This document shows, piece by piece, positions 3,933 through 61,154 of a stretch of 64,000 bases of DNA. Where the stretch lies: NCBI GenBank assembly GCA_963930775.1, contig OZ005706.1, positions 3,090,545 to 3,154,544 on the forward strand. Direction: 5' to 3'. The stretch's first letter is position 1, and each line of letters opens with the position of its first letter. The notes under the pieces are model-generated. The model saw only the letters and a list, made by a program, of their open reading frames with translations. It did not search any database and was not told the DNA's origin. The translations under genes and the position numbers were made by a program. The stretch comes from Cliona cf. orientalis (lineage: Eukaryota; Porifera; Demospongiae; Clionaida; Clionaidae).

Positions 3933-4834
3933 ATGATACTGTTTAAATTTTCTGACTATGTGAGTTTTAATACTGTAAGTAACTTATGCATATTAGCCAC
4001 ATTATTCCATGATTGTGACATCAAACATACTTGTATCCCCTTTATATATTTTATATAGATGGAAATCATAAGCTGGTGAGATGGAGAATGGTAATACATG
4101 GAGCAATTGATGGATTTTCCAGAATGGTGTTGTATGTACACTGATGTAGTAACAACAAAGCAACAACAGTACTGTCACTATTCAAACAAGCAGTGAACGA
4201 GTATGGATTACCATCTAGAGTGCGAACTGACCAAGGCTTAGAAAATGTTGAAGTAGCCAAGTTAATGTTGATGGAGCGAGGATTTGATCGTGGGAGTATT
4301 CTTGTAGGCGCAAGTGTACATAATCAACGCATAGAGCGACTCTGGCGTGATGTATTTAATGCAGTGTCCCAATTGTATTATCGTCTTTTTTACCACATGG
4401 AAAGTATCGGACTACTGGACCCCCTCGATTCCGTTCATCTTTATGCTTTGCATTTCGTATTTTTACCACGCATAAACAAGGCACTCAATGAGTTTATCAA
4501 AGGTTGGAATAAGCACACACTGAGCAAGACTGGTGGTCAGTCACCACTGAAACTGTATGCAAAGGAAACGATTCGCTTGCGTCAGTCAAACCTACCTGCA
4601 TTTGATTATTTTGATAGTATATCAGAATATTACGGTTCAGAAGAGGATGATGATGATATTGCAGTTTTGCCAATAAATAGTCTAGATATACCACCTATTG
4701 AGATTAACTTGACTGAAGATGGCTTAGAAATTCTTAAACTGATAGTAAATCCGCTCTCCCAAAGTGAATCATATGGGATTGATCTTTACGAGAGGACACT
4801 GGGTGTCCTACAAGAATTATTAATTATTCTTTAG

Positions 4835-24235: not shown

Positions 24236-27200
24236 ATGTACAGCTGGTACATTAATCTTGTCTTATTGGCCTCTTTGTTCTTGAGTGCAAGTGCACTTAG
24301 TGAGAACAGCACTGATGATCAATGGAGAATCACCTACATTATACCCGAAGACAGTGAATCATCACTTAGATGTCCTGTGAACTATTGCTACTATCTTCAA
24401 GACGTGTTCAGCAACTCATCCTACTTTTTTGACTCCTATACAACACTGGAACTGCTACCTGGTGAATACAACATCACCGAAAAGGTGGGTCAGTTGGTTC
24501 TTATCAATGTTACAAACTTCACACTTAGAGGCTCATCACCAAATGTAACCATCACTTGTCAACCAGGTACTACTTGGGGACTGATTATTATTGAAAGCCA
24601 GTATATTAAAATTTCTAATATTAAAGTCAACTACTGCTCAACAAAATTGCAGCCGAATGACCCAAATTTGGTATCTTACAACAAACTACTAGGGAAATAT
24701 TTGGGGTACAATTTAAGCTCTTGTGATGCAAATACTGATAGCTTTCCGGCCTGCTTTACTTTCTTTGCTAGCTTCAGCAATGGAAACCTCTCCTTGTACG
24801 AAACTGCTATACTTTATTCTAAAGGAGTAGGGATTTTTAGTCTTGATGACAATGGATTAGACATTCATAAGAGTATTTTGGCATACAATCAGATAAATTG
24901 CATCGCTTTCGTGCTGGACACTACAAATACCACCATTAACATAATACAGTCTCGAATAGAGTTTGGACAAATGAAATTGCACCGCTTCAACTTTGCATCA
25001 GGAGTGAATTTATTTGTGCAAGTATGCGAAGAAACCCATACTATACATTTAACAGACATTATGCTTAAGAATAACAGAGGTACATATGGAAATTTTTATA
25101 TGGTAGTAAGTGCTCTATCAACATCAGTAGACCATGAGAATATTTATGTGAATATAGAGATCATCAACTTGACATCTATCCATACATGGTCGGCATATGC
25201 ATATGGCTTGGTTGTAAAATACAAAATTAAGCTCGATAAATATGTAAGGATCAGCTTATCTCGTCCATTGAGTAGTAATTATTACGGTTCATGCTTTGGG
25301 TATTCACAATTTGACCCTGACTGTTACCCATGGCTCTCTTGGGGATTGCCCATCAGTAATTTGTTATTGAGTAACACTTTTAATCGATGGCCAAAACGTG
25401 TGGATATTGTATTACAAAACAGTCACTTTATAGGAAGCTGTGTGGTCATAAAGGATTCAGCATTATCCACAGAAGGTGAAGGCATGTGGTTCTTGTTTGC
25501 GATGAATAATATTACAATTAATCAAAGCTGGTGTTCAACAGCGTTGTCTGTGCTTAATAGTGATGTGAACAGTGTTGATGTACAATTATCAGATCTTACC
25601 ATCAGCAATAGCCACAGCAACGTTCTATTAGTTAACTTGGCAAGTGAGGGATCATTAAAAATAACTGGCTATACATCATTTTTATCTAACCAAGGATCCG
25701 TTACATTATTAAGTGGAGCAATTGAATTTGCGGATTCTATTCTGATTTCTAATAACACTGCACACAAACATGAAAGCATATTTCAAGTTAATGATTTAAG
25801 CAAGGTATATTTTCATGGAGAAATAAGGTTTATCAACAATACTGGAAGACAGGGTGGAGCCATATCAGCATACAGCTCAAATTTATACTTTGGTGGCAAT
25901 ATGACTTTTATCGGTAATTCAGCAGATAATGGTGGCGCAATCAGTTTAAAGGAGGGTGCAGTGATTAACTTAAATGCAGGTATATACATAATTTTTCAAG
26001 CAAACATAGCAGATATGTATGGAGGTGCCATCTATGTAGAGGATACAGCATTTTGGGCAAGAAGGAGGATAAAGTGTTTTGTTGGAAGTAGAAAATTTAA
26101 TGGATATGTAGAATTTGAAAACAACACTGCAGGAGTAGCTGGAGCTGACCTTTTTGGAGGATGGATCGATTTATGTGGACCAAGATATGGTACAAAGCCA
26201 AATAACATTTTTGATTTCGAAGAGAATAGTGTAGCATCAAATCCTACAGGAGTGTGCATTTGCACAAATTCGACACTAAACAAGCACAAGACAGAAGTTC
26301 ATATTAAGATATTTCCAGGCCAATCCTTTGAGATAGAAGCTGTAGCAGTGGGGCAAAGATTTGGAATGACTCCAGCATCTGTGAGAGCAGAAACACCCGG
26401 CACACATGTGATTGATCAGCTACAGAAGTTACAGGATACAGAAAATCACTGCACTACACTAAAATTTACTGTCAAGTCATCTAACAGAAATGAGACCATA
26501 CTACTGAACGTAGATGGACGGACTTTACCCAAATGGATCAATGGAAGTATACCTGATGAATTTCGTCAACTTAAAATACTTATTACACTAAAGGATTGTC
26601 CACTAGGATTTGAGTTTGACAGTAGACAAAATATTTGTTCATGTCACCCTTACTTGGATGCCTATGGAGTTAAATGTAACTTCACAGCCTACAAAATCAA
26701 CAGACATGCCCGGCAGTGGATTGGTGTACTAAATAAGCCCAAAATGTTTGTCATTCATCAGCACTGCCCTTATGATTATTGCAAACCTTATGCTCTTTTA
26801 CTCAACCTATCAACTCCTGATGATCAATGCTCCTCTAACAGATCGGGCATTCTGTGTGGAGCATGTCAACCAGGCCTTAGTCAAGTCCTGGGTACCTCAA
26901 ACTGCAAAAGATGCTCTAACGTATGGCTACTACTGACAATCATTTTTGCCTTAGCTGGTATATTACTGGTAGCAGGTTTGCTGATGCTTAATATCACTGT
27001 CGCCACGGGAACAATCAATGGACTTATCTTCTATGCCAACATAGTCAGAGCTAATACTGCAACCTTCTTTCCCAACAAGACAGCTAACACCTTCCTCAGC
27101 TGGTTCATAGCATGGCTCAACCTTGACGTGGGAATTGAAACATGCTTCTACGATGGTTTAGATGCCTACTCTAAATCATGGCTCCAGTTTGTGTTTCCTT

Positions 27201-28078
27201 TGTACATTTGGTTCCTGATAATGATTATTATCATTTCTAGCAAGTACTCAAAGAGAGCAGCGAGCATAATTGGAGTAAATGCAGTCCAAGTTTTGGCCAC
27301 CTTATTTCTTCTATCGTATGCTAAACTACTTCGACTGACCATAACAGTGTTTCAACCAACACATTTGTTTAATAATCACAATGTATGGTACTATGATGGA
27401 AACATCCCTTATCTTGGAAATTGGCATGCTCCACTCTTACTAGTTGCTCTACTATTTTTTGCACTCTTCCTCCTTCCATACACCGTGATCCTTTTTAGCA
27501 TTCAGTGGCTTCAGATGTTCTCCCACTACAAGCCTTTTCATTGGGTCAATAAGCTCAAACCACTCTTTGATGCCTATACTGGCCCTTACAAAGACAAGCA
27601 TCGATACTGGACAGGTCTCCTTCTACTAGTACGCATTGTCCTCTTCATTGTATTCTCTACCAACACTTCTGGAGATTCAACTATCAATTTGTTCGCTGTT
27701 ATTGTCATAGTTATGTGCCTATTTGCCTATCTTGCTATCTTCGGTGGAACCTACAAGAACTGGCTACTAAATGTATTAGAATATTCTTCGCTACTAAATC
27801 TCGCTATTTTGTCTGCTGCAATACTCTACACAACATCAGTAGCTGATAATCCAAACCACAATTTATCCCAAGTGTCCGTCAGCATCACACTGTGCACCAC
27901 CATGCTTGTCATTGCCTATCATGGCTTCATAACAATACTAAAAGCTTTAAAACTGGACAAGAAGATGTGGAGGAGCAACAAGACAGACCAAGAACTAGTA
28001 GATGAACACAATACGATTCTGAATCCTCAAGTCACACACTCAGTTATTGAACTGAAGGAACCACTTCTTGAATACTGA
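24236..28078 (+). CDS. Large membrane protein: beta-helix ectodomain plus multi-TM C-terminus
   Basis: Single exon, 1280 aa, ATG at 24236. A signal peptide is clear (YINLVLLASLFLSASALS). Residues about 25-700 form an N-glycosylation-rich ectodomain with parallel beta-helix character. Residues about 490-625 show Pmp-like GGAI and FxxN repeats (FINNTGRQGGAI, FIGNSADNGGAI, ADMYGGAIYVED). A cysteine-rich segment at 790-895 (CSCHPYLDAYGVKCNF; CGACQPGLSQVLGTSNCKRC) precedes eight or nine hydrophobic helices at about 895-1245. The short cytosolic tail ends IELKEPLLEY. Intronless tandem families with this layout are abundant in sponge genomes; they look like adhesion-type surface receptors, but no ligand or signalling is known. 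A shorter relative lies 1.5 kb downstream on the same strand. Confidence 0.8.
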   Translation: MYSWYINLVLLASLFLSASALSENSTDDQWRITYIIPEDSESSLRCPVNYCYYLQDVFSNSSYFFDSYTTLELLPGEYNITEKVGQLVLINVTNFTLRGSSPNVTITCQPGTTWGLIIIESQYIKISNIKVNYCSTKLQPNDPNLVSYNKLLGKYLGYNLSSCDANTDSFPACFTFFASFSNGNLSLYETAILYSKGVGIFSLDDNGLDIHKSILAYNQINCIAFVLDTTNTTINIIQSRIEFGQMKLHRFNFASGVNLFVQVCEETHTIHLTDIMLKNNRGTYGNFYMVVSALSTSVDHENIYVNIEIINLTSIHTWSAYAYGLVVKYKIKLDKYVRISLSRPLSSNYYGSCFGYSQFDPDCYPWLSWGLPISNLLLSNTFNRWPKRVDIVLQNSHFIGSCVVIKDSALSTEGEGMWFLFAMNNITINQSWCSTALSVLNSDVNSVDVQLSDLTISNSHSNVLLVNLASEGSLKITGYTSFLSNQGSVTLLSGAIEFADSILISNNTAHKHESIFQVNDLSKVYFHGEIRFINNTGRQGGAISAYSSNLYFGGNMTFIGNSADNGGAISLKEGAVINLNAGIYIIFQANIADMYGGAIYVEDTAFWARRRIKCFVGSRKFNGYVEFENNTAGVAGADLFGGWIDLCGPRYGTKPNNIFDFEENSVASNPTGVCICTNSTLNKHKTEVHIKIFPGQSFEIEAVAVGQRFGMTPASVRAETPGTHVIDQLQKLQDTENHCTTLKFTVKSSNRNETILLNVDGRTLPKWINGSIPDEFRQLKILITLKDCPLGFEFDSRQNICSCHPYLDAYGVKCNFTAYKINRHARQWIGVLNKPKMFVIHQHCPYDYCKPYALLLNLSTPDDQCSSNRSGILCGACQPGLSQVLGTSNCKRCSNVWLLLTIIFALAGILLVAGLLMLNITVATGTINGLIFYANIVRANTATFFPNKTANTFLSWFIAWLNLDVGIETCFYDGLDAYSKSWLQFVFPLYIWFLIMIIIISSKYSKRAASIIGVNAVQVLATLFLLSYAKLLRLTITVFQPTHLFNNHNVWYYDGNIPYLGNWHAPLLLVALLFFALFLLPYTVILFSIQWLQMFSHYKPFHWVNKLKPLFDAYTGPYKDKHRYWTGLLLLVRIVLFIVFSTNTSGDSTINLFAVIVIVMCLFAYLAIFGGTYKNWLLNVLEYSSLLNLAILSAAILYTTSVADNPNHNLSQVSVSITLCTTMLVIAYHGFITILKALKLDKKMWRSNKTDQELVDEHNTILNPQVTHSVIELKEPLLEY

Positions 28079-29606: not shown

Positions 29607-31490
29607 ATGGCATTTATACCATTTCTACTGTCGCTCATCACAGTAATTATTATAGGTACAGCTAATAAATCCAGCCAAAATCTTGTCATTTATGTGGATC
29701 CAATGAATGGAACAACGGACATCAATTGTTGGACCAGTGGACTGGAGCAGCCCTGTCAAAACTTGGAAATAGCATTGGAAGGAGCTAAACAAATTAAGGA
29801 TTCTGCTATCATGACTCTACAACCAACATCAATACAATCAAATCAACCACTCGTAGAGAGAGTTGACACTGATGATTGTCCGACTTGGATGAATTTCAAT
29901 GTGGCTTCAGATAGATGTGAATGTGGCAAGAGTATTCATGGCATAGTAAGATGTAATGATACGTTAAAAGAAGTCTCCATTTTGGACTGTTACCTGATGA
30001 CATTTGACGATGAACTGGGTCAGGTGATTGTTGGGCGATCGTTTTATGGTTGCGGTAGAGGTGCAGCAAATCAAGGTGATATAATATACCACCAAGTACC
30101 TAACAATAAGACACAAATCAATGACGTAATATGCAATCATTTCAACAGAGAAGGAAGACTATGTGGCACATGTAAAAGAGACTATAGCCCACTAATCTAC
30201 TCATACAAGTTATATTGTATACAGTGTTCAATTGTCGAGAGCCGAAAAAATTGGTTCAAAGCTGCTGCTGTGGCCTTCATTCCTCTGACATTTCTCTATG
30301 TATTTGCAATGCTATTAAATTTCAATGCCAACTCACCATCGTTGCATGGATTTGTTCTTTTGGCTCAACTATTTTCGTCACCTACCAATGTGAGAATGAT
30401 AGTATCACACGTACAACAGCACCACTATCCTCTCATTTACAGGCTAGCAGAGAGAGCTCTAATAACTCTATATTCAATTTGGAGCCTTGATTTCTTTCGT
30501 ATCTTGTATCCTGACATTTGCTTGAGAGTAACCACCCTTCAGGTATTATTCTTGGAGTATTCAGTTGCTATTTATCCTCCTGTGCTGATACTCTTGACCT
30601 ATTTTGCTTCAAAGTTACACTCTCGAGGCTTTCGAATTGTCATTTGGGCTTGGAAACCGTTTCAGTTATGCCTAATGAAAATAAGGGGAAAATGGGATAT
30701 TAACACTTCAATGATTGACGTTTTTGCAACTTTTCTTCTCCTATCATATCACAAGCTGTTAAGTGTCAACTTTGATCTCTTAGCATTCATAACACCAATA
30801 AACTCAACTGGAAATATGGTGGGTACATATCTCTATTATGATGCAAGCTATGAATATTTTGGTCGGGACCACCTCCCATATGGACTTGTAGCCTTACTCA
30901 TCTTCATATGCTTTAATCTTCTACCTCTCTTCTTACTGTTGCTCTACCCAATGAAGTGGTTTCAGAGATGCCTAAACCTCTTCAAACTCAGTCACTTTTC
31001 CCTGCACACATTTGTTGACTCATTTGCTGGTTGCTACAAGGACGGAACAGAGCCAGGAACACGAGACTACCGCTACTTTGCCGCTTTGTTTCTCCTACTC
31101 AGAATCCTTCTTTACATTGCTTATGAAGCAACATTAAATATCTACTTTTATGGATTATGTGCCCTTCTCCTTGGAATATATGCAATTGCGGTAACCATAA
31201 CAAAGCCATATAAGTCAATGTATAATAAGTATAATACTTTAACACCCACAATGCTCATCATCATGGTGATGATTGTTGTGTCAATAATGAATGTAAGTTT
31301 TGCACTGATTAAAGCTCGCCACCTGAGGACGCTTTCGGTTGTCATTACAATCATACTGATGTCATCACCTCAGCTTTACATCATTGGAATATTTCTCAGG
31401 TGGATACGTCGACAGAAATTGTTCAGATTTCAATTTTTAAAATCCAAATCTGATAGCGAAGTATCTCTTCTTACCGCTGCTGATGGTTGA
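29607..31490 (+). CDS. Short paralogue: signal peptide, Cys-rich stalk, multi-TM protein
   Basis: Single exon, 627 aa from the ATG at 29607 (MAFIPFLLSLITVIIIGTA signal peptide); the open frame extends eight codons further up but without an ATG. The stalk retains the beginning (YVDPMNGTTDINCW, EQPCQNLEIAL) and the cysteine module next to the membrane (CGKSIHGIVRC; CNHFNREGRLCGTCKRDYSP). About 600 residues of beta-helix found in the upstream gene are missing. Eight or so TM segments follow from residue about 225, with shared features such as FLLLSYHKLLSV, YGLVALLIFICFNLLPLFLL, LHTFVDSFAGCYKDGT and RYFAALFLLLRILLY, equivalents of LLSYAKLL and FDAYTGPYKDKHRYW in the neighbour. It is a paralogue with a deleted ectodomain rather than a decayed gene, as the frame is fully open. 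Confidence 0.8.
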   Translation: MAFIPFLLSLITVIIIGTANKSSQNLVIYVDPMNGTTDINCWTSGLEQPCQNLEIALEGAKQIKDSAIMTLQPTSIQSNQPLVERVDTDDCPTWMNFNVASDRCECGKSIHGIVRCNDTLKEVSILDCYLMTFDDELGQVIVGRSFYGCGRGAANQGDIIYHQVPNNKTQINDVICNHFNREGRLCGTCKRDYSPLIYSYKLYCIQCSIVESRKNWFKAAAVAFIPLTFLYVFAMLLNFNANSPSLHGFVLLAQLFSSPTNVRMIVSHVQQHHYPLIYRLAERALITLYSIWSLDFFRILYPDICLRVTTLQVLFLEYSVAIYPPVLILLTYFASKLHSRGFRIVIWAWKPFQLCLMKIRGKWDINTSMIDVFATFLLLSYHKLLSVNFDLLAFITPINSTGNMVGTYLYYDASYEYFGRDHLPYGLVALLIFICFNLLPLFLLLLYPMKWFQRCLNLFKLSHFSLHTFVDSFAGCYKDGTEPGTRDYRYFAALFLLLRILLYIAYEATLNIYFYGLCALLLGIYAIAVTITKPYKSMYNKYNTLTPTMLIIMVMIVVSIMNVSFALIKARHLRTLSVVITIILMSSPQLYIIGIFLRWIRRQKLFRFQFLKSKSDSEVSLLTAADG

Positions 31491-34435: not shown

Positions 34436-35863
34436 AAATATTTAGAGTACTTCCAAAAACATTTTGTTTTAGTTCCTGCGGATAAAGCGAGTAATAACGT
34501 CTTAGTCGTTTGCAAAAAATATTACCTCGATGTAGTATTAAAAGAGCTTAGCACGAAGAATGGGACTAGCCCACAAACTTACACACCTTGTGGCGCTCAC
34601 GTGGACCATCTAGTTGCGGAGCACATAGAATTTTTGATTAAACAAAATATTAGAATCCCAACGGATATGAAACAACTGCCAGCCTTTTACTGGCTCCCAA
34701 AAATGCACAAAAATCCGATAGGTAGTAGATTCATAGCAGCTTCTAGTGCATGCACCACCAAACCTCTATCACAATTGCTAACACCTAGTCTTAAACTAAT
34801 TACTATACATTTTAAACAGTATTGCGCAGGGATTGCTAGAAATACAGGTGTTAATTGTTTTTGGATCATTAATAATGCCGCGGAAGTCCTAAAAAAACTA
34901 AAGAAATTAAACCGTACCAAAGGAGCCAGACATTTTGATAGCTTCGATTTTTCTACTCTTTACACTAATATACCACACGATCTTCTTCTAGACAGCATCA
35001 GCCAGCTCATTAGTGAGGCATATAGAATTAGAGGGGCAAAATATTTAGTAGTGCAGGGCGATGGCACAGCGTACTGGTCAAACACAGTATTAACACGTGA
35101 ACATAGTATTACCGAGGACCAACTGGTCAAACTAATAAAATTTCTCGTGGATAATATCTACATTCAAGTCGGAAACAAAATTTTTAGGCAAACAATAGGC
35201 ATACCGATGGGCACTGACTGTGCCCCACTTCTAGCAAACCTTTTTCTTTTTTATTACGAGTACAATTTCATGAAAGAAAAACTTAAACATAATAGTCAAA
35301 TAGCAAAAATTTTTAGTAACACTTTTCGATACATTGACGACCTACTTACACTTAACAATCCAACTTTTGAGCAGGAAATTAGGAATATATACCCGCGACA
35401 ATTAGAACTAAAAAGGACCACGGAAACAGATAGTAGGCTTTCTTATTTAGACTTAGAAATAAACATTAGCGATAGGAGATTTACCACGGCAGTTTTTGAC
35501 AAGCGCGATAATTTTAGTTTTCACATAGTCAATTTCCCTCACATGGATAGCAATATACCTAGCAAACCAGCCTATGGGGTTTATATCTCTCAGTTAATTA
35601 GAATAGGGCGCATATGCGATAGTTACGAGAGTTTTTACACCAGACACCACAAATTAACCTGTAGATTAGTCAAACAGGGTTTTTTATACGATAAACTAGT
35701 TACTACTTTTAAAACATTTTGTAGCAGGTATCCTGAGATTTTTTCCAAATTTAAAATTTCCATTAGAAAGCACGTACAGGATGGTATTTGCCTTCCCACT
35801 GTAGCTATCAGTAGTCTGCCGAATAAAGTAAACATTAGATCTAGGTCTTCAAAAAAATCTTAG
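34436..35863 (+). mobile_element. Penelope-like retroelement reverse transcriptase, no endonuclease
   Basis: The frame is open from 34436 (KYLEYFQKHFVLVPADKASN) to the stop at 35863, 475 codons; the first ATG lies well inside, so the 5' end is truncated or uses another start. Motifs in order: PADKASNNVLVVCKKYYL (PLE N-terminal box), LPAFYWLPKMHKNP, SFDFSTLYTNIPH (first catalytic Asp), GIPMGTDCAPLLANLFLFYY, and FRYIDDLLTL with the two catalytic Asp. A thumb region follows (SYLDLEI, KPAYGVYISQLIRIGR). The GIY-YIG nuclease that usually follows is absent: the protein ends 130 residues after the thumb with a basic tail. The open frame suggests recent activity. Confidence 0.85.
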
Positions 35864-43198: not shown

Positions 43199-43224
43199 GT
43201 AAGTGAGCACTTTGTCAGTACAGT

Positions 43225-44805
43225 ATGGATCGTCATGTAGTTTCTCCCTCTCTGCTAAAACTAGTAGATGAGAGGAAATCTGAAAGTAGATCTATTTCAA
43301 GTCTATTTTGTCTAGGATTGCCAGAATTTTGTAACTGTGAAAAATGTGTCTCTATAAACCGAGAATCCGACACAGCTACTGAAAATAGTGTAACGAGTGC
43401 CCCAGTAAAGCGCCTTAAACTATCACTGTCTAAGGAGAAGTCTCGTTTTGCCTGTCCTCTACCCGAAGATTCGATGACCGAAATTTCAAAAGGGAAAAAG
43501 TGCATCAACACAGAGCGGAGTACAGCTTGGGCTACTGGGGTCTTCAAGCAATGGATCGAGCAGCGCAATCAATTGTCGCCAGCTGACGCTTGTCCCGAAG
43601 ATTTTCTGGAGTTAAGGCACTCGGAGGACGTTGACAGGCTTCAAAAGTGGCTCTGTCGTTTTGTCGTTGAGGCCAGGAAACAAGATGGGCAATCGTACCC
43701 CCCTACTTCTCTGCAAAATTTGCTTTCAGGTATTCTTAGATACATGAGAAATGTTCATGGCGATACACCAGATTTTCTCTCAAAGAAGGACTGGCGTTTT
43801 CGAGAGCTCAGGGGCACGATGGAGCGAATTTTCTCCGACTTTCGCAAACAAGGAGTTGGGGCTGAGGTGAAACACACACCGATTATCACAAAAGAAGAGG
43901 AAGACCAACTGTGGAAGGCTAAGGAGATGGGTACAGAAACCCCCAAACAGCTTCTTCAAGCTGTTTTTTTTCTACGTGGGAAAAGTGTTCTGCCTTAGAG
44001 GAGGAGTAGAGCAAAGGGGCTTGAAGGTGTCACAATTTCAACGGCGTTATAGCCCTGACCACTACGTACGTGTATGTGGAGAATGGCTCGAAGAACAATT
44101 CTGGAGCTAATCTTAAAGTGCAAAACAAAGTGGTTCCTGTGTATGCAAACGTAGAGAGTGGTGCAAGGTGTGTTGTAGCTCTTCTAGATAAATACCTGTC
44201 CAAGCTCCCTCCTGTGGCATTTGAAAAGGATATTTTCTACATGAAACCTAAGGTATCTACCCCTGTTGATGCTGATTCTCCATGGTACGAGGGTGCTCCT
44301 GTAGGAAAAGAGACACTTCGAACCATGCTGGCAAAGATGTGTGAATGAGCTGGGGTGGAACGCAAGTCCAATCATTCACTGAGAGCCACTGGAGCAACTG
44401 AAATGTTCAAGAAAAACTTATACAGAAAAACTTATACAGTCGAGGACTGGGCACCGCTCTTTAGATGCACTTCGATTGTACGAGAGGCCATCACATGAGC
44501 AGCATCAAGCAGTATCAAATGTTCTAACATGTGCAATACCTCAGAGGAGCTTTGGAGATGAGCTAACAAATATTCAGTCCACAGCTGAACCCTCTGGTGT
44601 TGTGTCCATGGTTGGAAATCGTGCTCTGACTAAATCAACAGTTGTCCAATCTCAGTGCCCTCCCCGCTGGCAGATGCCTTCCCTCTTCGGCAGTATGAAT
44701 CAGTGTTCAGTCAATATCAACATTAACATGAATGCTCCACAATCAAGGAAGTCAGTGGAAGAAGAGTTTGACGATTTGGTTACCAATGTACACTTCCCAT
44801 ACTGA
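43225..44805 (+). pseudogene. Crypton-type tyrosine recombinase (DUF3504/KCTD1-ZMYM-like), decayed
   Basis: The frame opens at ATG 43225 and runs 257 codons, with NTERSTAWATGVFKQWIEQR, then DVDRLQKWLCRFVVEARKQ, then LQNLLSGILRYMRNVHGD and FRELRGTMERIFSDFRKQGV. This is the N-terminal SAM-like half of the metazoan Crypton/DUF3504 family (relatives: ZMYM2, QRICH1, KCTD1). The catalytic half follows in other frames: LRGGVEQRGLKVSQF just past 43990, then YVYVENGSKNNSGANLKVQN and DIFYMKPKVSTP (44070-44345), then SNHSLRATGAT, and TGHRSLDALRLYERPSHEQH around 44450-44510 carrying the late His/Tyr region. Frame changes fall near 43960, 44075 and between 44348 and 44460, plus a TGA at 44346. Inactive copy. 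Confidence 0.75.
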
Positions 44806-46616: not shown

Positions 46617-49600
46617 ATGGCAAGGGTGGTTACAAAAGACTCAATATTCGGTGAAGGTGACAGTTACAGTTTCCGTATAGCAATCAGATTGGGACAAATT
46701 GAACGTGTCAGCAAGTTCATCGAAGAAAGATACTCAACTGTCAACTTAGGTGGTCTCCTTCACTATGCTCTCTCCTATGACCAAATTGAAATAGTACGAC
46801 TGCTGATAACGAAATTCGAATGTTCTGTTGACTGTAGAAATGAGGCAAATGAAACACCACTCCATCTTGCTTGTAGAACAGGTGATCATGATGTTGTCAG
46901 AATGTTTGTCTCTGAGTACAAAGCTGATTTGCTTGCCCGTGATAACGATAACAACACACCTTTGAGTACAGCAGTCACCAGTGGGCATGATAGTGTTGTA
47001 TCATGCCTGATTGATGAATTTACATGTAGTCCAAATGTCAAAGGATTCAAAGGTCAGAGTTTACTTCACCAGGCTTGTGATTCCAGAAATGAAGAGCTAG
47101 CAAAAGGGTTGCTTTTGGACTATCACCTAGATCCATTGGCCGTTGATGATAATGGGGATACTGTTTTGCACACAGTGGCCTCTAATGGTAGTGAGGAAAT
47201 GCTCAACCTTCTCATCACTAAGTATAAGTGTCCTGTTGATAGCAAAAACAGCTGTTTTGAAACACCTCTTCACTATGCTTGCAAGGAAGGCAACGTAGCT
47301 GCTGTGAGAGTGCTTATATCTCAGCATAAAGCAGACATGAATGCCTTAGATAGTCAAAATTTTACACCACTAGATTCTGCAGCCAGGAGTGGTCAAACTG
47401 ATGTTGTGAAGTGTTTTATTGACAAATTCAATTATAGTCTTATTGGAAGTCAAGGTATAACCATACTGCAGATTGCTTGCTTTGCAGGACATGTTGACCT
47501 GGCAGAAACTCTGATAGCACATTATAATTTAGACCCAAAATCTGTAGATGATAATGGAAATTCTCCTCTTCATTTTGCTGCTACGATTTGTGATCAAGAG
47601 ATGCTAAGCCTTCTCATTACCAAGTACGAGTGCCCTGTAGATTGCAGAAACTGCACCAATGAAACCCCTCTTCACTGGGCCTGTCAGAAAGGAAATACCG
47701 GAGCTGTCAGGATTCTTGTATCAAAGTACAATGCAGACCTGACCGCTCACTGTATGGGTAACAGCACCCCTCTAAATGAAGCTGCCTTAAATGGGCACAC
47801 TGATGTTGTAAAATGCCTAATTGACGAATTTGGCTGTAGTATCGATGTGAAAGACGATCAAAATAGAACCATACTCCACAGTGCTTGTCGTGAAGGACAC
47901 ACTGATCTGGTAGAAACTCTACTATCACAGTACAGTCTGGATCCACTTTCTATTGACGAAGATGGAAACACTCCTCTCCATGCTGCTGCCTCAAAAGGTC
48001 AGGAAAAAGTGGTAAACTTGCTACTTTCTAAATACAACTGTCCTGTTGATCGTAAAAATAACACTAACCAAACACCACTTCATTGTGCTTGTAGCAGAGG
48101 TGACCTAGGCACTGTCAAAATGCTAATTACGGAGCACAAAGCAGATTTGTATATCCAGGATGAATATGGAAATACACCAGCAATGGTAGCAGCCTTAGAT
48201 GGAAAAAGTGAAGCTGTGAAAAGCTTGATTGATGAATTTGGCTATGATCCAAGCAGTAAAGGGTATGATGGTAGAACCCTCCTGCACCAAGCTTGCATTT
48301 CTGGAAATACTGATCAAGCTGAAGTACTCATAACTTGCTACAATCTTGATCCAGTGGCTGTTGATGATAGTGGAAACACACCTCTCCACCTAGCCACTTT
48401 GAAAGGCAATGAAGAGATGGTAAAAGTTCTTATTACCAAATACCAGTGTCGTGTCAACTGTAAAAATACGAATAATGAGTTACCGCTAGATCTAGCTCTT
48501 GTAAATGATCACCAGAATATTGTCGACTTGCTGAAGAAGGGAGAACTTGAAACTGACAAGGATCTATTACCTATGATACCACGGGAAGGATATATCTGTG
48601 CAGCTCGAAATTCAATTTGTATCGTTCAGACACCAAGTGATATACCAATCAGTGTCATCATCGACAGTGTTGATGATGTAACATTTCATCCTAAACTACA
48701 TGCAAGAGAATTCCTGTTAACGCCCATTGTACGTATCTCATCTGATACAAATGAATTTTGTCCTAATAAGCAAGCAGTAGTTGAGTTACTGAAAACAATT
48801 GAGCTTCAAGATTGTGAGAATAACCCCATTCCTATGTTCAGTGATACTCGTCCTTCACAACCCCCACGATGGAGGGATCTGAATCCTGATGATTTTGAAG
48901 TGCTTCAAGATCGTATTGTGTTCAACACAACTCACTTTAGTCTTTTCACAGTGATTGCTCGTCTTCCCACCCCAACTAATTCTGTCACAGTTACTCAAGA
49001 TGAAGAAGATCAAGAGCCCATTGAGCTCACTCTTTCAGAAGTGTCAAATGTTAAAGTAGTCATACCTCCTTGTAGTATCAAGAGTGAATCTGTGGAAACG
49101 GAAATAAAAATCACAGCTAATTTTGACCACCCTTCACTTTGCGATGAATCATTTGATGCTACTGCTTGCATCACTCTAGAGCCACATGGCCTAGAGTTTA
49201 AGGAGAGAATGTCAATCCGAATTCCTATTCCAGATTATGCACAGATCCGTGAAACATACAGTAATGCAAAATTGCAATTTTTGCATTCGAATGACTCCTT
49301 GGATAGCAAATGTGCCAGTTGGATAATTATTCCAGAAGGTGAATATGAGACTGTGAAAGAAGATGGTGAATATGTGGGAATTGTGTATTCTACACATTTT
49401 TCGAACCGAAAAGCTGTGTGGCTTAACATTCCAAAGAAAATCAAGAGGGAAATTCAAGGTCCTATTCATAAATTCCGTAGGTGCATCGCAAAAAAGGCTT
49501 TGAAACGTTTTTCAGGAAGATGCCAAGTATTTATGTCTAGCGAAGCAGTTATCGGGAGTCTTTTAAGTTTCAGCATTGCAGCTCTTTTGCATCCCCTTCA

Positions 49601-52600
49601 AGAATTTCACGAAATTCCAAAAAATTACTGTTATATGCTTTATGATAGTGAGAAAACACCAATAACAGTTAAGGGGTCCACTCTTAAGCTAACTGTAGAA
49701 TTAGCCGACTATTGTAGTAGCAAAAAATCGAAGATATATTGTAAAGAAGTTGAACTATCTGGAGATTTTAGCACTCGAGAAGAATTTGATATTGAATTAG
49801 ATTCCAGTACTCTTCTTGTTGATGGAGCTGTTCTTGGTAAGCTGTCAATCGAGCATGGACAAGGCAAAGCACACACAATGAATCTCATAAAGGTAAAATT
49901 AAAATTTATGACAATTATAATTAGTATAGGTAATCACATGAATTCGAGTGCAATTTGGGAAATAATTGCATGAGTTATGTATTAGAAGGAAAGTAATTGC
50001 ACGAGGTGAAGCCGAGTGCAATTTATCCTTCTAATACATAACAAATGCAATTATTTCCCAAATTGCATGAGAATTCATGTGATTGCATGTTAATCATATA
50101 GTACAGTTAGCAAAGGAGCTGTGGGGCAGCCACTGTTGTAGCTGAGGCACACTGGCCAACCACAAGAATGTTGCTGTAAGGTCAGTGTTGGTAAGTGGTC
50201 GACGAGTTCAACAGTCACAAGAAGCTATTGTGCATGCTAACTGAAGTCTTGACCACGCCTCACTGTCATATGCATGCACGAACGGTATGAGTCGGTTGCC
50301 GTTTCGCTCGCTCGTTCTAGAGCTCAGTATTCTGCCGGGCAGCAGAGCAGACGCATAGATACAAGCGAAGAGGAAGGGTCTAGCTCGATGACTTCTACAA
50401 AGCCTTCTGAGTTCTCTGTCGATCTCCACAACGCCATGGTGGCCAGCTCAGCTATCCGCCATTCAAGGACTCGTTCGCCGTTGCTGGGCTGGTGCTTGTT
50501 GCTATGATCGTACGAGCGATCTGATTGGTCCAGCGCGCGCCGCTGTCGGTCAGTAAGCTTAAGTGTGCAATTACTGCGCAAATAAGTGTGCAATTAAGAA
50601 AATAATTGCACACTTAATAGTCTATGGGACTTTTGTATAGAGACAAAATAACTATATGATTAAACTAGTTTTTGATTAGCTATCTAGTGCATTCACTTAG
50701 ATTTCACATGACAAATTATGCAGCCAAGGAAAGCCGCTATCATGAAGCATATCCCTGAAAACCAGTCTGAAGAAGGTATCACAACTTCATCGGCAAATCC
50801 TAAAGGACAAAAAGCAACAGCTGAGGAACCTGAAATCATAGTCTACGTTCCATCTTGTAAGAGAGCAGTTTGATCTTGAGTTGCATGATTGTGAATTTGC
50901 CTATGACCTTGAGTATGTATAGTATCACTAAACTACATTAATATAGATATAGTCATCACCATAATTATTTTTAATGCTTCATGGATTTTCTCAAATTTAA
51001 TTGTATCTCATTACAACTGTAGTGGATTCAACAGCTTTACTGAAGCCCAAAGACATCTCTTCGGTGAGCTCTCACCTCTGGCCAGCACGCCACAAATGGC
51101 GGAGAATTGGAATGGCTGTAGAGATTGATCCTACCACCCTCGAGGTGATTCAAATGGACAATCGTCGCACAGATGATTGTTTCAATGAGATGCTGACGAA
51201 ATGGCTAAGGAGTAACCAACCTTTGCCATGTTGGAAGAACTTAACAACTACTTTACAATCAGTTGAAATTAAAGTTTTAGGTATGTCACTAGTTTCTCGT
51301 TACCATTACACTGTATAATATTTTTGTCTCTATTACGACAGATTCAACTGTTTACTCGTCAGGGGAAAGTGTGAGTTGCTAACTTATGTACTATAAAAAT
51401 AGAGTCAGTAGACTCCATGAGTAGAAATAACACTCCCATTCACAAAGGACAAATAAACTCATCAGCTGATTTCCCATATAATCAGCCCAATTAAGACAAA
51501 TTAAGAGACTATCATAGACTTGGTAGACTCTGTAAGTAGGAATGGCGTGGATGTTACATAACATAATACATTACAAAAATGAAAATATCTCAAAAATGGA
51601 ACAGTTTCAGAACTTCTAACCTTGACCATCATGTTCTATGAGCTACATTACACCTAGAGAGTCTATTGATATCCACAGAAAGGGTCATTTACGTGCGGAA
51701 CCTGTGGGTGACAACAATAGCATTTTCTCCTTTCTTTTCACAATAGTATAACTCGGCACCACATCAACATCTTGAGCTACTTTTCATATCAATCAGTTCA
51801 GTTTCAGAAGTGATTGTGTAAAACCCAGCCATTTCATTCTTCATCATAAAGCTATGGTGGCCGAGAAGGACACTATCCGTGGTACACATCGACCCCGACG
51901 CGTGAACACTTCTTCCGACGTTCGTTTTCCGACGCACGAACTCCTCTCCCGACGTTCATCTTGCCCCGACATACGTTTTCCGACTCATCAACCCCTCTCC
52001 TGACGTTCATTTTCCCGACGCACGTTTCCCAATGCGTGAACCTTTCCCGACGTTCGTTTTCCCGACGCGTGAAACCCTCTCCCGACGTGCGATTTCCGAC
52101 GCGTGAAACTTTTGAAACTGTTACGATATGTGATAGCTACTGGTCTTTCAACGCGTTTTCCCAACATGTGAAATCTTCCAACATGCGTTCTCGATTTGTG
52201 AAACACTCCGATGTGCCACAGCGTGTACATACAAGCACTCTTTTAAAATAAGGGTTGCATGGGGTGTCACATATGCATCCTTGGCTAACGGTGCAGATGA
52301 GCAGCAGAGACAGTCACTAGCTATAGTTATATTCATTGTCCGCGTTACAGCCGAAACTTTGTAGTACGCATGCGCAATATTTAGAATAACGCACAATAAA
52401 TAATAATTATTATTTATTTAACTAAAAAGTGCAGAAGCATAGAAATTGCGCACTCTAGTTCATTTGTATTGCCAGTATAATATTAATATTCCTAAGTTGC
52501 AATTAAGTTTAGTAGGAAAGAGATGAACCTTTTGTTTAATAATAGAGAAGCGGTCATCCCGCCTATAAGCGTCTTTTGCGCGGCCACGCCCACATATATT

Positions 52601-55600
52601 TGTAGCCTCGAACTAGGCTCCTCCACCTCTACGCTTCTAGCGGCCTTATGATCTAGGCCTTTATTTAAGTGATAACCACTTACTTGGCTCTCAAATGTGA
52701 AGGCTTAATTTGGGAGACCACTGCCAACCCCCAAGACATATTATGCGCACGGCGCTCTGTTTACTGTACTGACATTTGCAAACCGCTGTATCCTTCGGGA
52801 GATAAACGCACATTGAGAGCTTGAACCATACCTCTGATAAGGCCAATGTGGAAAAGTACGAAGCGGGAAACGAACGACGGGAAAATGCATGTCGGACGAA
52901 GAAGAGTTTCATGCGTCGGGCCCGAAATGCACGTCGGGAGAGGGGTTCACGCATCGGAAAACGCACATCGGGATAGGAGTTCACGCGTCGGGAAACACAC
53001 GTTGGGGGATCAATGTGACAGTGTACCATGGATAGTGTCCGTCTCAGCCACCATAGTTTGCGCGTCGGGAAAACGAGCATCGGGAGAGGTGTTCACGCGT
53101 CAGAAAACGTACGTCGGGAGAGGTGTTCACGCGTCGGGGTCGATTCGTACCACGGATAGTGTCCTTCTCGGCCACCATATAAAGCAGTGAGCTTCAAATA
53201 CCTAAAACAAATCACCATTGCCATGCATATCACCAGTCTTAATCAATGCAGTAGCGTTTAGCTACCTACCAAGCTCAAACTAAGGACTAGGTCAGCTGCA
53301 TAATTATCATTGTTACAGATGGAGAAGCCTCCCATCCATTCTCCAAGGACAAGACTCCCAGTACCTCTGCCTGGAAAGATAGTACCAATGAAAAAACCTC
53401 CACTTCCACAGAAGCAGATATCCTTTTTGGCCAAACAAGCTATTGCTGTACGTTACTAATGTTTGTCCTGTGGTCACTGTGACAGTCAATGAATCAATAG
53501 GCTGCAGTTCATCAGCTCAACACATCACTAAACCAATGGGGAAGTAATGTTGTTACTGAAGTGGCTAAGACAATAGCTAACTATACTGAACAAATGGCCG
53601 AGTATGTGAGGTAAGTACAATCTATCATCATTATGCCACTAATTATTTATTTTGAGAATGTGATATTAAATTTGAATTTCAGAGATAATTATCAAGATAC
53701 AGATATAATTCGAGATGATTTTGCTGCCCTTGCTGAAAGCATTGTGTGTGAAAGTGAGAAGCTAATTACTGTAGGACATGAAGTAGCAAACGTATGCACG
53801 AATGAGATACTCAAAAAGGTATTGATAAGATCCAAAGTTATAATGAATAGCATATTTACTTGATCAGATGCTGCTCTTGAACAGTTGCCACACCTCCAGA
53901 TGTGCTGAAAGAAACTATTGCTAGCCTCGTCCCCAGTGTGTAACACTGAAAATGTGGAAGTGGCCTGGGGACGAGGCTAATTGTTGCCACCCTCGAAATG
54001 TCCCTGGCTACTTGTACAAGTTTGTGTGTAAATCTCATGACAACATACAAGCCAAGAGTAACGGTGATACAGAAAAAGTAGTTCATTCTCCTCTAGCTTG
54101 TCTTCATATTCTACATCAGTGAAGGGATTAGATTCCTCTGGCTACTATACAAGTACGTGTGCAAACTTCGTAAGTCGATGATAAAATATACAAGCCAAGA
54201 GTAACAGTGGTACAGAAAAGTATTTCATTCTCTTTTAGCTCATCTTCATAATATTCTACATCAGCAAAGGGGTTAGATTCCTCTGTGTGTCAAGTGTGGT
54301 CGTTTCTCTACGAATTGCCTCTCTGGCACCTACTGATATCAATAAACGCTGCTCTTGAATAGTCACCGCTCTCTAGCAGAAGCCGCACAAAATTGCATGT
54401 AATAGCTGCAGCATCTGATTGAGCGAATGTGGTACCAGAGGAAGTAGGACGGATGATATCATGTGTCACCGCACACTAATGAACATTCCACAGTCAATTA
54501 GCGTAAAAACCTACATAAAACTGTGCCGTTAGGACAGGGTGATGGTGAGATCATGAGCATTTCAGGCATGCTGGAGCTATGTGACAGATAAGGGCCTTGA
54601 CTAAAAGACTTCCTACCCTGTGAAGGGCATTTTTTAGGCTCATTGCTAAGGTATACCATAAAATTGACCCTATAGTTATAGCTTCGGCACGGCTAGAAAC
54701 CTCACAATCCCACCATGACCCCGTACTATAACTGCTGTTTATTTTTGTGTTAATTGACTATGGAATGTCTACATGTATTAGTGCGCAGTAATTGAAATGA
54801 CATGTCCTACCTCCTCTGGTGGTTAGGTCTGAGCTAATTATTCACTTAAATTTGCCTATTATTCAAATATTTTATTCACAAATTTACTCCCTATTATTCA
54901 ATAATATGTCCCTATTATTCAAAAATAATAGGTACCGTACGGCATTTTCCGACCTCTCGAGTAGATCACGGAAAGCGTCTAGTTTTGTGAGAGGGATGGC
55001 AGCACGCAAAAAAGTCTTCAAAACCTTGAGCCTATACACATACTGACTCATTGGCAGAGTTTCACCGACACATGCAGGGTGGTGCTCAGCATCATAGATC
55101 CTCAGACTGTCAATGATAGTTTGGTCTTTAGCTTTACTTGTCCTGACCTTCTCCTTGCTTGTCCAGTGCTTCTTGCAGGTGATATGATTGGTGATAATGT
55201 TCTTTCTCGGACTTAGCTCTTCCCTACAGGCACTACAAAATAGTTTTCCACCTCTACCAACAGTCAAGCACTCGTCAGGAAATTCATTCACTCGATCTTT
55301 TGCATTGACGGACTTTGGCTCACTAGAACCTTGACCTCTGGACCTCTTTTGGCCAACGGGCGGATTCGAGTCATTTCTTGTTAGGTCAGATGCTTGTGGA
55401 GCTTTGAGAACGTCTAGCAGTGATCGAGGACTGGCCATAGAGACTAGCAGAAGTTCAAAGTCTAAGGAAGCACGTGTTGACAGCACAGTCTGCGCATGCG
55501 CAGTACTTCGTTGAACACTTGAAGAGCCCATTATTCAACTTCTGCAAAAAGCTGCCTATTATTCAAAAAATTATTCCTGAATAATTAGCTCAGGCCTACT

Positions 55601-56154
55601 GGTGGTACGTTTAGTACATACCAGAATCATACTCACTCAATAATATTATAGGCTCTACAACAAGAGAGTCTTCCGAAAGTTGAGCCAATTTCCAAACAAT
55701 TTGAGTTACTTAAGAGGGTAATGGAACCTTCTCATGAAGCACATGGTGAGTTGATACAGTAAGGTACAGTATATTATACCTTAGTTATGCTGCATCACAG
55801 GTGATAAGGTCATAGGTTCACACAAGTCACATATTATAGGCCTACATGTTTGCCAATATAAGGCTAATAATATAATATTTGGGAGATACTTGTAGTAGAT
55901 ACTAGCTACGGTCCATTAATGGTAACTGGAAACTAAACTAGATAAGCTTGCTAATAGTATCAGATTCTGTAATCAGATTGACAATGTCTAGTCTATGCTG
56001 AAAATATTTTGTGCCTGATCTTGCAGGTGATGCTATTCTGGTAGATAATGCTGAGAATCTACTGTCAGCAGTTAAGGAGGTTATTGAGGCCATTCAAGCA
56101 GCCACTATTGAAATTAAAGATCGCAGTATTCGGGAGAGATTAGGACTCAAATGA
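46617..56154 (+). CDS. Ankyrin-ZU5-UPA-Death protein with C-terminal vinculin-tail domain (9 exons)
   Basis: Exons: 46617-49892, 50724-50856, 51023-51280, 51342-51370, 53319-53447, 53501-53610, 53683-53818, 55652-55745, 56027-56154. All are GT..AG and every phase agrees (0,1,1,0,0,2,0,1); 4293 nt, 1430 aa. The start is fixed by TAATAA directly before ATG. Residues about 45-650 are 18 ankyrin repeats; about 660-785 and 786-950 are ZU5-like modules (FNTTHFSLFTVIARLP; ACITLEPHGLEFKERMSIRI, YSTHFSNRKAVWL). About 975-1090 is UPA-like; about 1137-1222 a Death domain (RHKWRRIGMAVEIDPTTLEV, MLTKWLRSN). A proline-rich linker (RLPVPLPGKIVPMKKPPLPQ) leads to a helical end like the vinculin tail (LVDNAENLLSAVKEVIEAIQ; vinculin has LVHNAQNLMQSVKE). 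Likely a cytoplasmic scaffold linking death-fold partners to actin or lipid. Main alternative: two genes, the second starting at MEKPPIHSP (53319). Confidence 0.75.
46750..48560 (+). repeat. Ankyrin array with four-repeat (about 408-bp) higher-order period
   Basis: The 34-residue repeats cycle through four types: one ending TKYxCPVDCRN, one ending HKADLxARD, one ending KCLIDEFxCSxxVKG, and one ending YxLDPxAVD. The cycle recurs about four and a half times through exon 1, so the array grew by duplication of four-repeat blocks. Confidence 0.85.
49893..50723. repeat. Intron 1: foldback and CpG-rich insert
   Basis: 49930-50095 forms a long hairpin (ATGAATTCGAGTGCAATTTG, CTAATACATAAC and inverses). 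50205-50560 is CpG-rich with promoter-like ORF shadows and no recognised domain. 50560-50620 again carries GTGTGCAATTA and its inverse TAATTGCACAC, so the whole 49.93-50.62 kb may be one foldback insertion. Confidence 0.65.
51853..53179. mobile_element. 1327-bp TIR element, TSD TAAAGC, same family as 828-1528
   Basis: Left end TATGGTGGCCGAGAAGGACAC and right end are exact inverses for over 30 bases, and similarity runs on through GTACnnATCGACCCCGACGC. TAAAGC flanks both sides (51847-51852, 53180-53185). Subterminal arrays (51890-52110 and 52860-53150) are degenerate tandem CCCGACGTTCGTTTTCCGAC-like units of about 25-35 bases in opposite orientation. A third terminus-like sequence (ATAGTGTCCGTCTCAGCCAC) at 53030-53050 points to an internal rearrangement or nested copy. 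It lies in intron 4 of the ankyrin-vinculin-tail gene and encodes no transposase. Confidence 0.85.
53921..53979. repeat. Hairpin, foldback family E (intron 7)
   Basis: TAGCCTCGTCCCCAG pairs with CTGGGGACGAGGCTA across about 30 bases; same family as 18871-18902 and 40351-40401. Confidence 0.9.
54824..55598 (-). mobile_element. 775-bp hAT element with 8-bp TSD, carries a zinc-finger/hAT-like ORF
   Basis: Ends TAGGTCTGAGCTAATTATTCA and TGAATAATTAGCTCAGGCCTA are inverted, and the flanks are an exact 8-bp duplication CTGGTGGT (54816-54823, 55599-55606), as for hAT elements. A 215-codon minus-strand frame (55531 to 54884) encodes a C2H2/BED-like finger (GKLFCSACREELSPRKNIIT, then NHITCKKH) and a helical segment (MSQYVYRLKVLKTFLRAAIP), like the N-terminus of hAT or CGGBP1-type proteins; no catalytic domain. 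The frame starts inside the right end and stops near the left one, so it fills the element. It lies in intron 7 of the ankyrin-vinculin-tail gene, opposite strand. Confidence 0.85.
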
Positions 56155-60051: not shown

Positions 60052-60229
60052 GCATGTGAATTTCAACCCATCAGTAATTATAAACCATGGCCAATTAGTG
60101 GCAGATCATATATATCATACAGAATTTGAAATCACTATTGCCACATTTTCAGCAGCAGTAATAGTGCTGATAGCAGTAGCTATTAGTATTACATTGGTTG
60201 TAGGATTTCTCCACTGTAACAGTGTATAA
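60052..60229 (+). CDS. Possible terminal exon with a transmembrane helix
   Basis: After a good acceptor (TTTTTATCTATC ... CCATAG) the frame reads HVNFNPSVIINHGQL, then FEITIATFSAAVIVL and IAVAISITLVVGFLHC before TAA at 60227. The hydrophobic stretch of about 23 residues followed by a short tail resembles a single-pass membrane anchor. The upstream exons were not found, and its phase does not fit the Death-domain exon downstream. Low confidence. Confidence 0.3.
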
Positions 60230-60816
60230 AAATTACATAAGAGAACCACTCCGTATTGAAGAACAAGCATCACCCTTGGTTGTGAAACTGGAAGATATTA
60301 ATTTATTTATTTATTTATATAATTTCTGCAAAGCAGGGGTTACATGAATTAGCATAAAGCTAGTAGCTACAAAGCATGCAACCGAAAAGAGAAAGTAATA
60401 ATTAGCATTAGTATGATTTAAATAAAATTAAAGTCTCCTGAGAGCAGACTAATGATACCATTCCCCCCCCCCCCCCCCACCCACCCTGAATGAAACCCTA
60501 TTAAGTGTGGCAGATTGATAAACTCATATTTTCAATTGGACACCCTAACAAAGATCAACACTGCTAAGGAATGTAAAGGAGACTACCAATCGCGAGTAGG
60601 CAACAGCTAGGTAAAGGGTCGATGGCGATTAATAATACTGTCGTCAGACTTCAAATTGCGGGTTGGCCTACCGATAGGATAGGGGCTTTCCCTGGGGATG
60701 CCCCACGATTCTACTGGATCTCCACTATGGCTGAAGGTATCACTATCAGAATAAACATAATGATTTCACTTCGTTATGACGATATTATTGTAATAATTAT
60801 GTCCGATATTATGCAG
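60230..60816. other. No gene recognised
   Basis: Has TTTATTTATTTATT at about 60300 and a C-run at about 60464-60478. GCTAGGTAAAGGGTCGA at 60608 recurs at 37457. Confidence 0.4.
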
Positions 60817-61154
60817 CCAGTTCGCAGATCTCTCGGACGGGACTCAATGCAGCACTAGGCAAACATGACTTATCTGCCATACTGAATCAGTTGGCAAGTG
60901 TAGCCTCCAAGTGGCAGCTCATCGGAACGTGCCTGGAAGTAGAGCAATCAGAGATCGATGAAATCGAGAAGCGTAATCTATCACCCAAAGAAGCTCTCTG
61001 TAAGCTACTTTCCAGGTGGCTAGATACGACCAATCATACGGTAACCTGGGCTGATATTGTTGATGCCTTGAGGCAGCCTATTCTCGATGAAAAGCGTGTT
61101 GCTCAACAAATTGAAGATGATGTAAGAAATCGATCAAGTGAGAATTTTAATTAG
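60817..61154 (+). CDS. Death-domain exon (C-terminal end of an adaptor-like protein)
   Basis: After a TTATGCAG acceptor the frame reads SSQISRTGLNAALGKHDLSA, then SVASKWQLIGTCLEVEQSEI and EALCKLLSRWLDTTNHTVTW, ADIVDALRQPILDEKRVAQQ, with stop at 61154: 111 residues. The order of six helices with the W-LG-LGI, 'LLxxW' and 'TWxxLxxAL' signatures is that of a Death domain. The usual continuation is short, so this is the last exon. The first exons were not identified; an ORF at 60622 overlaps in another frame. If a full gene exists it would join receptor or ankyrin/ZU5 proteins in death-fold signalling, like the gene 5 kb upstream. Confidence 0.65.

What the first reader, a model, noticed from the sequence alone, without database searches (positions are those of the whole stretch)
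46617..56154. A single gene appears to fuse ankyrin-ZU5-UPA-Death architecture to a vinculin tail
Nine exons have matching phases and an in-frame total (4293 nt). The small fourth exon (51342-51370) ends in a strong GTGAGT donor, so the transcript must continue past the Death domain. The next acceptor in the right phase opens the proline-rich and vinculin-tail exons. There is no vinculin head nearby. Vinculin tails bind F-actin and acidic lipids; ankyrin/ZU5/Death proteins scaffold signalling. A single polypeptide with both would tie death-fold signalling to the cytoskeleton; I do not know such a protein.
Basis: partly seen in the sequence, partly recalled or inferred. Interest (0 to 1): 0.88.

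Follow-up and report, generated by a model that had tools for sequence, protein, structure and literature searches.

The report
Death-domain scaffold with vinculin-like tail
A probable sponge gene seems to join a cell-death adaptor that may cut itself to a tail like that of the cell-adhesion protein vinculin, but whether the two halves are really one gene still needs RNA evidence.

Summary
The nine exons exist at the stated coordinates and read as one open frame of 4293 nt (1430 aa). The last 198 aa are a real vinculin tail: PF01044 E 3e-10, just above cut-off; 51.8 bits against at most 7.2 in 2000 shuffles. The Death domain is supported by an ungapped match to a clear Death domain 9 kb away and, by profile, to FADD. 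ANK repeats are certain; ZU5 is marginal; UPA was not detected.

New here: the two ZU5-like units each end in THFS (two THFS in 0 of 20,000 shuffles). HF/S after each ZU5 is the PIDD self-cleavage site (PMC3210808, passages). The front half therefore looks more like PIDD with ankyrin repeats than a spectrin-binding ankyrin. The tail is acidic (pI 4.9, human 9.7), which argues against lipid binding.

The junction is unproven. Exon 4 read through stops three codons on, 70 nt before an AATAAA, and the tail ORF opens with ATG. I put the single-gene reading at 0.58. No relative was confirmed in the viral and prokaryote collections; no genome or transcript data were available.

The parts
46617..49892 (+). 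Exon 1 (aa 1-1092): ankyrin repeats (about aa 1-640), then two ZU5-like units and a UPA-like region
   Evidence: open frame; Pfam Ank_2 E 1.8e-125, Ank 15 stretches, ZU5 marginal
48930..48941 (+). First THFS motif (aa 772-775), predicted self-cleavage site F|S at the end of the first ZU5-like unit
   Evidence: motif meaning from PMC3210808 passages
49041..49226 (+). ZU5 match (aa 809-870)
   Evidence: PF00791, 19.7-20.0 bits, cut-off 21
49392..49403 (+). Second THFS motif (aa 926-929) at the end of the second ZU5-like unit
49464..49892 (+). UPA-like region (aa 950-1092), assigned by position only
   Evidence: no Pfam hit; only a low-confidence colinear hhalign alignment
50724..50856 (+). Exon 2: linker
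51023..51280 (+). Exon 3: Death domain
   Evidence: Pfam Death 20.7 bits, cut-off 22.6; BLAST 5e-9 to the neighbouring Death domain; two-sequence profile hits FADD, E 1.3e-4; alone by phmmer no significant PDB hit
51342..51370 (+). Exon 4 (29 nt), the hinge of the fusion claim; may instead be part of a terminal exon ending in TAA at 51382
51849..53179 (.). 1.33-kb inverted-repeat element (MITE-like) lying in the intron, or gap, between exons 4 and 5
   Evidence: inverted arms 51853-51965 / 53067-53179, 88%
53319..53447 (+). Exon 5: proline-rich basic linker and start of the vinculin tail; begins with ATG directly after an acceptor
53501..53610 (+). Exon 6: vinculin tail
53683..53818 (+). Exon 7: vinculin tail
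55652..55745 (+). Exon 8: vinculin tail
56027..56154 (+). Exon 9: end of vinculin tail, stop codon
   Evidence: AATAAA at 56347

Best explanation
One host gene encodes a 1430-aa scaffold: ankyrin repeats (target binding), two PIDD-type ZU5 units each ending in THFS, a UPA-like region, a Death domain, a short basic proline-rich linker and a vinculin-type tail. Proposed working: the ZU5 units cut themselves at HF|S, as in PIDD. The ankyrin part stays bound as sensor or inhibitor. When it is removed or rearranged, the C-terminal piece (UPA, Death domain, tail) is freed. The Death domain then recruits partner Death-domain proteins, while the tail fixes the assembly to a partner such as F-actin or vinculin-family proteins. 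Shown by sequence: the exon chain, ANK, Death, vinculin tail and the two THFS motifs. Inferred: the splice from exon 4 to exon 5, the ZU5/UPA folds, self-cleavage, partners and function.
For: The nine-exon chain is in frame. The vinculin tail scores 51.8 bits against at most 7.2 in 2000 shuffles, and 21 of 24 PDB sequences listed are vinculins. The Death domain is supported by its neighbour and by FADD. Two THFS motifs occur, against 0 of 20,000 shuffles (two or more HFS: 15 of 20,000). The local hhalign score to an ankyrin+PIDD tandem profile is 30.1, with a maximum of 22.05 in 60 shuffles. For the join: exon 4 is the best of 129 in-phase candidates; of the two phase-0 donors in the exon-4 read-through stretch, the one at 51370 has a GTGAGT core and fits exon 5; exon 5 has a good acceptor (top 3.3%) directly before it, whereas none of the three other assumed starts printed (24236, 29607 and this gene's own 46617) is directly preceded by AG, though 29607 has one two bases off; intron 7, inside the tail itself, is of similar length (1833 nt, from the coordinates), so a 1948-nt intron 4 is not out of place.
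Against: No transcript or related genome was available. Exon 4 read through stops after 3 codons, with AATAAA 70 nt further on. The tail frame begins with ATG and has an in-frame stop 18 nt upstream. A mini-exon as good as exon 4 appears in 150 of 400 resamples of the gap, and codon usage does not favour the reading frame in exons 4 and 5. ZU5 is below the Pfam cut-off and UPA was not detected; phmmer of aa 641-1092 finds no ZU5 or UPA structure. hhalign to ankyrins alone did not beat shuffles (23.8, maximum 27.35). The better score has a stated probability of only 8.4%, uses a recalled PIDD sequence that no call checked, and fails in global mode (2.1 against a shuffle maximum of 10.6). THFS was picked after seeing the sequence. 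AlphaFold models were useless (pLDDT 31.5 and 42.7). Acceptors of exons 2, 3 and 6 score only average under the same splice weights, so those weights discriminate poorly here.
Confidence: 0.58

Rival explanations
1. Two adjacent genes on the same strand: an ANK-ZU5-(UPA)-Death adaptor ending in exon 4 (...SSGESVSC, stop) with a polyadenylation site near 51452, and a small separate vinculin-tail protein of 198 aa starting at ATG 53319.
For: Stop ending 12 nt after the exon 4 donor and AATAAA 70 nt after the stop. The tail frame opens with ATG, with a stop 18 nt upstream. The gap without the inserted element is only about 0.6 kb. Spliced-leader addition, which could use an acceptor just before an ATG, is reported in a glass sponge (PMC10282587, passages).
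Against: A GTGAGT donor in the right phase three codons before that stop, and a good acceptor abutting the tail exon, would both be coincidences. None of three other assumed starts abuts an AG. The inverted-repeat element would leave about 140 nt upstream of the ATG. AATAAA is at chance frequency.
Confidence: 0.32
2. Both forms occur: alternative polyadenylation after exon 4 gives a Death-ended protein, and splicing to exon 5 gives the vinculin-tailed form.
For: Both a usable stop plus AATAAA and a usable donor are present within 100 nt.
Against: No expression data; neither end is shown.
Confidence: 0.1

Closest known systems
PIDD (PIDD1): LRR - ZU5 - ZU5 - UPA - Death
   Same: two ZU5-like units each ending in HFS, then a UPA-like region and a Death domain; PIDD's cleavage right after each ZU5 at HF/S is from PMC3210808 passages
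   Different: ankyrin repeats instead of LRR; extra vinculin tail; cleavage untested
Canonical ankyrins: 24 ANK - ZU5 - ZU5 - UPA - Death
   Same: order of domains; ANK repeats
   Different: 15 stretches of PF00023 detected; no HFS in the ankyrin-1/2/3 stretches printed; no ankyrin with a vinculin tail is known to me; one survey found no ANK + ZU5-ZU5-UPA gene in nine sponges (PMC5135030, passages)
Vinculin, including VIN1 (PDB 6bfi; that it is the sponge Oscarella protein is recalled)
   Same: proline-rich linker and tail, 29% and 27% identity to the two tails compared
   Different: no vinculin head found in the part tested; tail acidic; possibly joined to a Death-domain protein
NLRP1 / CARD8 FIIND (ZU5-UPA with SF/S cleavage)
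   Same: self-cleaving ZU5-UPA placed before a death-fold domain (PMC3210808, passages)
   Different: one ZU5, CARD not Death, no vinculin tail

Membership tests
Vinculin family (tail) | PF01044 match above cut-off | tested here: met
   39.5 bits, cut-off 38.1, profile 673-834 of 852
Vinculin family (tail) | basic tail (acidic-lipid binding) | tested here: not met
   pI 4.94 against 9.71 (human stretch) and 9.55 (VIN1)
Vinculin family (tail) | hydrophobic actin-site positions (human I997, V1001; roles recalled) | tested here: inconclusive
   aligned as L and V, but K996 aligns with E (numbering counted from the 1tr2 row)
Vinculin (whole protein) | N-terminal head bundles | tested here: inconclusive
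   no Vinculin hit among 19 of the 43 window ORFs of 110 aa or more (listed) given to Pfam; 24 were not given
PIDD-type self-cleaving adaptor | HF/S at the end of each of two ZU5 units | tested here: met
   motifs at aa 772-775 and 926-929; two THFS in 0 of 20,000 shuffles; that they end ZU5 units rests on a marginal ZU5 call
PIDD-type self-cleaving adaptor | ZU5 fold | tested here: inconclusive
   20.0 bits, cut-off 21; local hhalign above 60 of 60 shuffles with recalled PIDD included, probability 8.4%, global mode fails; ankyrins alone not above shuffles
PIDD-type self-cleaving adaptor | UPA domain | tested here: inconclusive
   no Pfam hit
PIDD-type self-cleaving adaptor | Death domain | tested here: met
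   Pfam alone below cut-off
PIDD-type self-cleaving adaptor | N-terminal LRR | tested here: not met
   ANK repeats instead
PIDD-type self-cleaving adaptor | actual self-cleavage | not testable with these tools
   -
Canonical ankyrin | 24 ANK repeats then ZU5-ZU5-UPA-Death | tested here: inconclusive
   15 PF00023 stretches; ZU5/UPA as above
Canonical ankyrin | spectrin binding by first ZU5 | not tested
   -

The most novel reading that the evidence does not exclude
A single polypeptide in which a PIDD-like, self-cleaving ankyrin-repeat/Death adaptor carries a vinculin tail, so that cleavage could release or anchor a Death-domain assembly on the actin or adhesion machinery. Eight full-text searches aimed at this architecture in one open-licence library showed no such protein in what they listed; two searches listed only 10 of 85 and 12 of 78 papers. 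My odds for this joint reading went from 0.55 to 0.45 on re-checking, because the PIDD-type fold support is weaker than I first wrote.
Probability: 0.45. Interest if true: 0.8.

Novelty: new variant of a known kind. Interest (0 to 1): 0.6.

Why it matters
If the join is real, an early-branching animal links death-fold signalling and cell adhesion or cytoskeleton in one chain, with a possible self-cleavage step between sensor and effector. It would also put an ankyrin-like ANK-ZU5-ZU5-UPA-Death order in sponges, if this is a sponge, where a survey of nine species found none (PMC5135030), and show the vinculin tail used as a movable module without its head. If these are two genes, an ankyrin-repeat version of PIDD with two HFS motifs and a headless vinculin tail would each still be unusual, as far as I know.

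Tried and rejected
Rejected: vinculin tail as a chance helical match (2000 shuffles). Set below the PIDD model: plain spectrin-type ankyrin (THFS motifs; ankyrin-only hhalign no better than shuffles). Set aside: lipid-binding tail (charge). Led nowhere: relatives in viral contigs and genome contigs, none confirmed; these hold viruses and prokaryotes, so absence says little about sponges. phmmer of aa 641-1092 and of the Death stretch alone against the PDB: no significant hit. NCBIfam: nothing relevant. AlphaFold on aa 641-1092 (pLDDT 31.5) and on the Death exon (42.7) gave useless models, so no fold search was run. No whole genome is held. The sponge vinculin paper was not held.

Full report
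What was checked. Phases agree, and the spliced frame is 4293 nt, 1430 aa with one final stop. Exon 1 alone is a 1092-aa open stretch.

Domains. Pfam gives ankyrin repeats (E 1.8e-125; 15 stretches of PF00023), ZU5 (19.7 bits, cut-off 21), Death (15.4 bits, cut-off 22.6) and, for the last 198 aa, Vinculin PF01044 (39.5 bits, cut-off 38.1, E 3.2e-10, profile 673-834 of 852). Scanned alone, the Death stretch reaches 20.7 bits and the ZU5 piece 20.0, both still below cut-off. The first ZU5-like piece and the UPA-like piece give nothing. By phmmer against the PDB neither aa 641-1092 nor the Death stretch has a significant hit.

The vinculin tail is solid. In the PDB 21 of 24 listed sequences are vinculins, best VIN1 at E 1.3e-10, and the other three have E of 0.5 or more. 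A model built from two known tails only, without the window, scores the spliced tail at 51.8 bits; the best of 2000 shuffles scores 7.2. Among 1556 window ORFs of 25 aa or more, the four best are those holding exons 9, 7, 6 and 5, though only the first is significant alone (E 3.8e-6, 0.057, 1.2, 4.6); exon 8 is not listed. Identity is 29% and 27% to VIN1 and human. The tail is however acidic (17 K+R, 26 D+E, pI 4.94; human stretch 9.71, VIN1 9.55), with a short basic proline-rich linker in front (pI 11.2).

The Death domain is supported by a second route. A neighbouring ORF (60780-61151) is a clear Death domain (36.2 bits). It aligns to this one over 76 aa without gaps (E 5e-9; 39.3 bits unadjusted, against at most 19.6 in 100 shuffles). 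A profile of the two finds FADD first (E 1.3e-4).

Tandem ZU5 of the PIDD kind. THFS occurs at aa 772-775 and 926-929. No shuffle of 20,000 had two THFS; 15 of 20,000 had two or more HFS. The motif was chosen after seeing the sequence. The literature gives HF/S after each of the two ZU5 domains as PIDD's self-cleavage site, and SF/S for CARD8 and NLRP1 (PMC3210808, passages). hhalign against ankyrin-1/2/3 alone is not above shuffles (23.8, maximum 27.35), and with UNC5B added to a ZU5C-UPA profile it is barely above (25.79 against 24.46). With PIDD added, from recall, the local score is above all 60 shuffles (30.1 against 22.05), but hhalign's own probability is 8.4% and in global mode the score is below the shuffle maximum (2.1 against 10.6). 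A loosened, low-confidence alignment runs colinearly and brings both THFS sites near the ends of the two ankyrin ZU5 domains. I take tandem ZU5 as likely, resting mostly on the motifs, and UPA as probable by order only.

The junction. Mini-exons as good occur in 150 of 400 Markov resamples of the 2-kb gap, or 10 of 400 of its first 301 nt. Other facts that favour the join are the GTGAGT donor in phase, a good acceptor abutting exon 5 and the lack of an abutting AG at three other assumed starts, one of them this gene's own. Facts against: exon 4 read through ends in a stop after three codons with AATAAA 70 nt beyond; exon 5 begins with ATG, with an in-frame stop 18 nt upstream; and codon usage prefers the reading frame in only 6 of the 8 exons 2-9, not in exons 4 and 5. 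A 1.33-kb inverted-repeat element (51849-53179) fills most of the gap. Spliced-leader addition is reported for one glass sponge (PMC10282587, passages) and could make 53319 a gene start. I weigh the single gene at 0.58, two genes at 0.32 and both forms at 0.10; this is judgement, not a computed posterior.

What is in print. Of ten searches, eight aimed at the architecture, one at spliced leaders (37) and one at PIDD-type cleavage (56). No ANK-ZU5-Death-vinculin protein appeared in what was listed. Listings were capped. Beyond listings and abstract starts, I saw passages of PMC5968619, PMC6040629, PMC9145010, PMC5135030, PMC8195603, PMC13245172, PMC10282587 and PMC3210808, and no paper in full. 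One survey reports no ANK + ZU5-ZU5-UPA gene in nine sponges (PMC5135030). Another reports 357 TRADD-N proteins in Amphimedon, up to half with unique architectures, mostly with Death-like domains (PMC8195603), so odd fusions of death-fold proteins in sponges are expected as a class.

Mechanism. Most likely: a self-cut adaptor whose ankyrin part senses and restrains, and whose UPA-Death-tail part signals and is held in place by the tail. Only the motifs and domains are shown; cleavage, release, partners and the actin link are inferred. The acidic tail makes lipid binding unlikely.

Noticed in passing
window 60780-61151 (+): A second, clear Death domain (Pfam 36.2 bits, E 6.5e-9) 4.6 kb downstream of the last exon, related to this gene's own Death domain (BLAST 5e-9); possible small cluster of Death-domain genes.
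   Followed up: partly
window 51849-53179: A 1.33-kb element with long, repeat-rich inverted arms (88% over 113 nt) in the gap between exons 4 and 5; no copy elsewhere in the window among the 14 of 19 match rows shown.
   Followed up: partly
window 49932-50084: Self-inverted 150-nt sequence (84%) inside intron 1.
   Followed up: no
window 54004-54285: Direct repeat of about 150 nt (78%) inside intron 7.
   Followed up: no
window 24236-28075 and 29607-31487 (+): Two long ORFs that by eye start like secreted proteins; the first has Chlam_PMP repeats (E 3.9e-6), the second no Pfam hit.
   Followed up: no
window 4145-4831, 34436-35860, 43207-43995 (+): Likely mobile-element remnants: integrase core (E 3e-53), reverse transcriptase (E 2.3e-6, below cut-off), and an ORF with QRICH1 (E 5.8e-8) and DUF3504 (E 2.5e-6, below cut-off) matches.
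   Followed up: no
window 60100-60228 (+): By eye, a membrane-spanning helix just before a stop, suggesting the end of another same-strand gene between the vinculin tail and the second Death domain (sequence).
   Followed up: no
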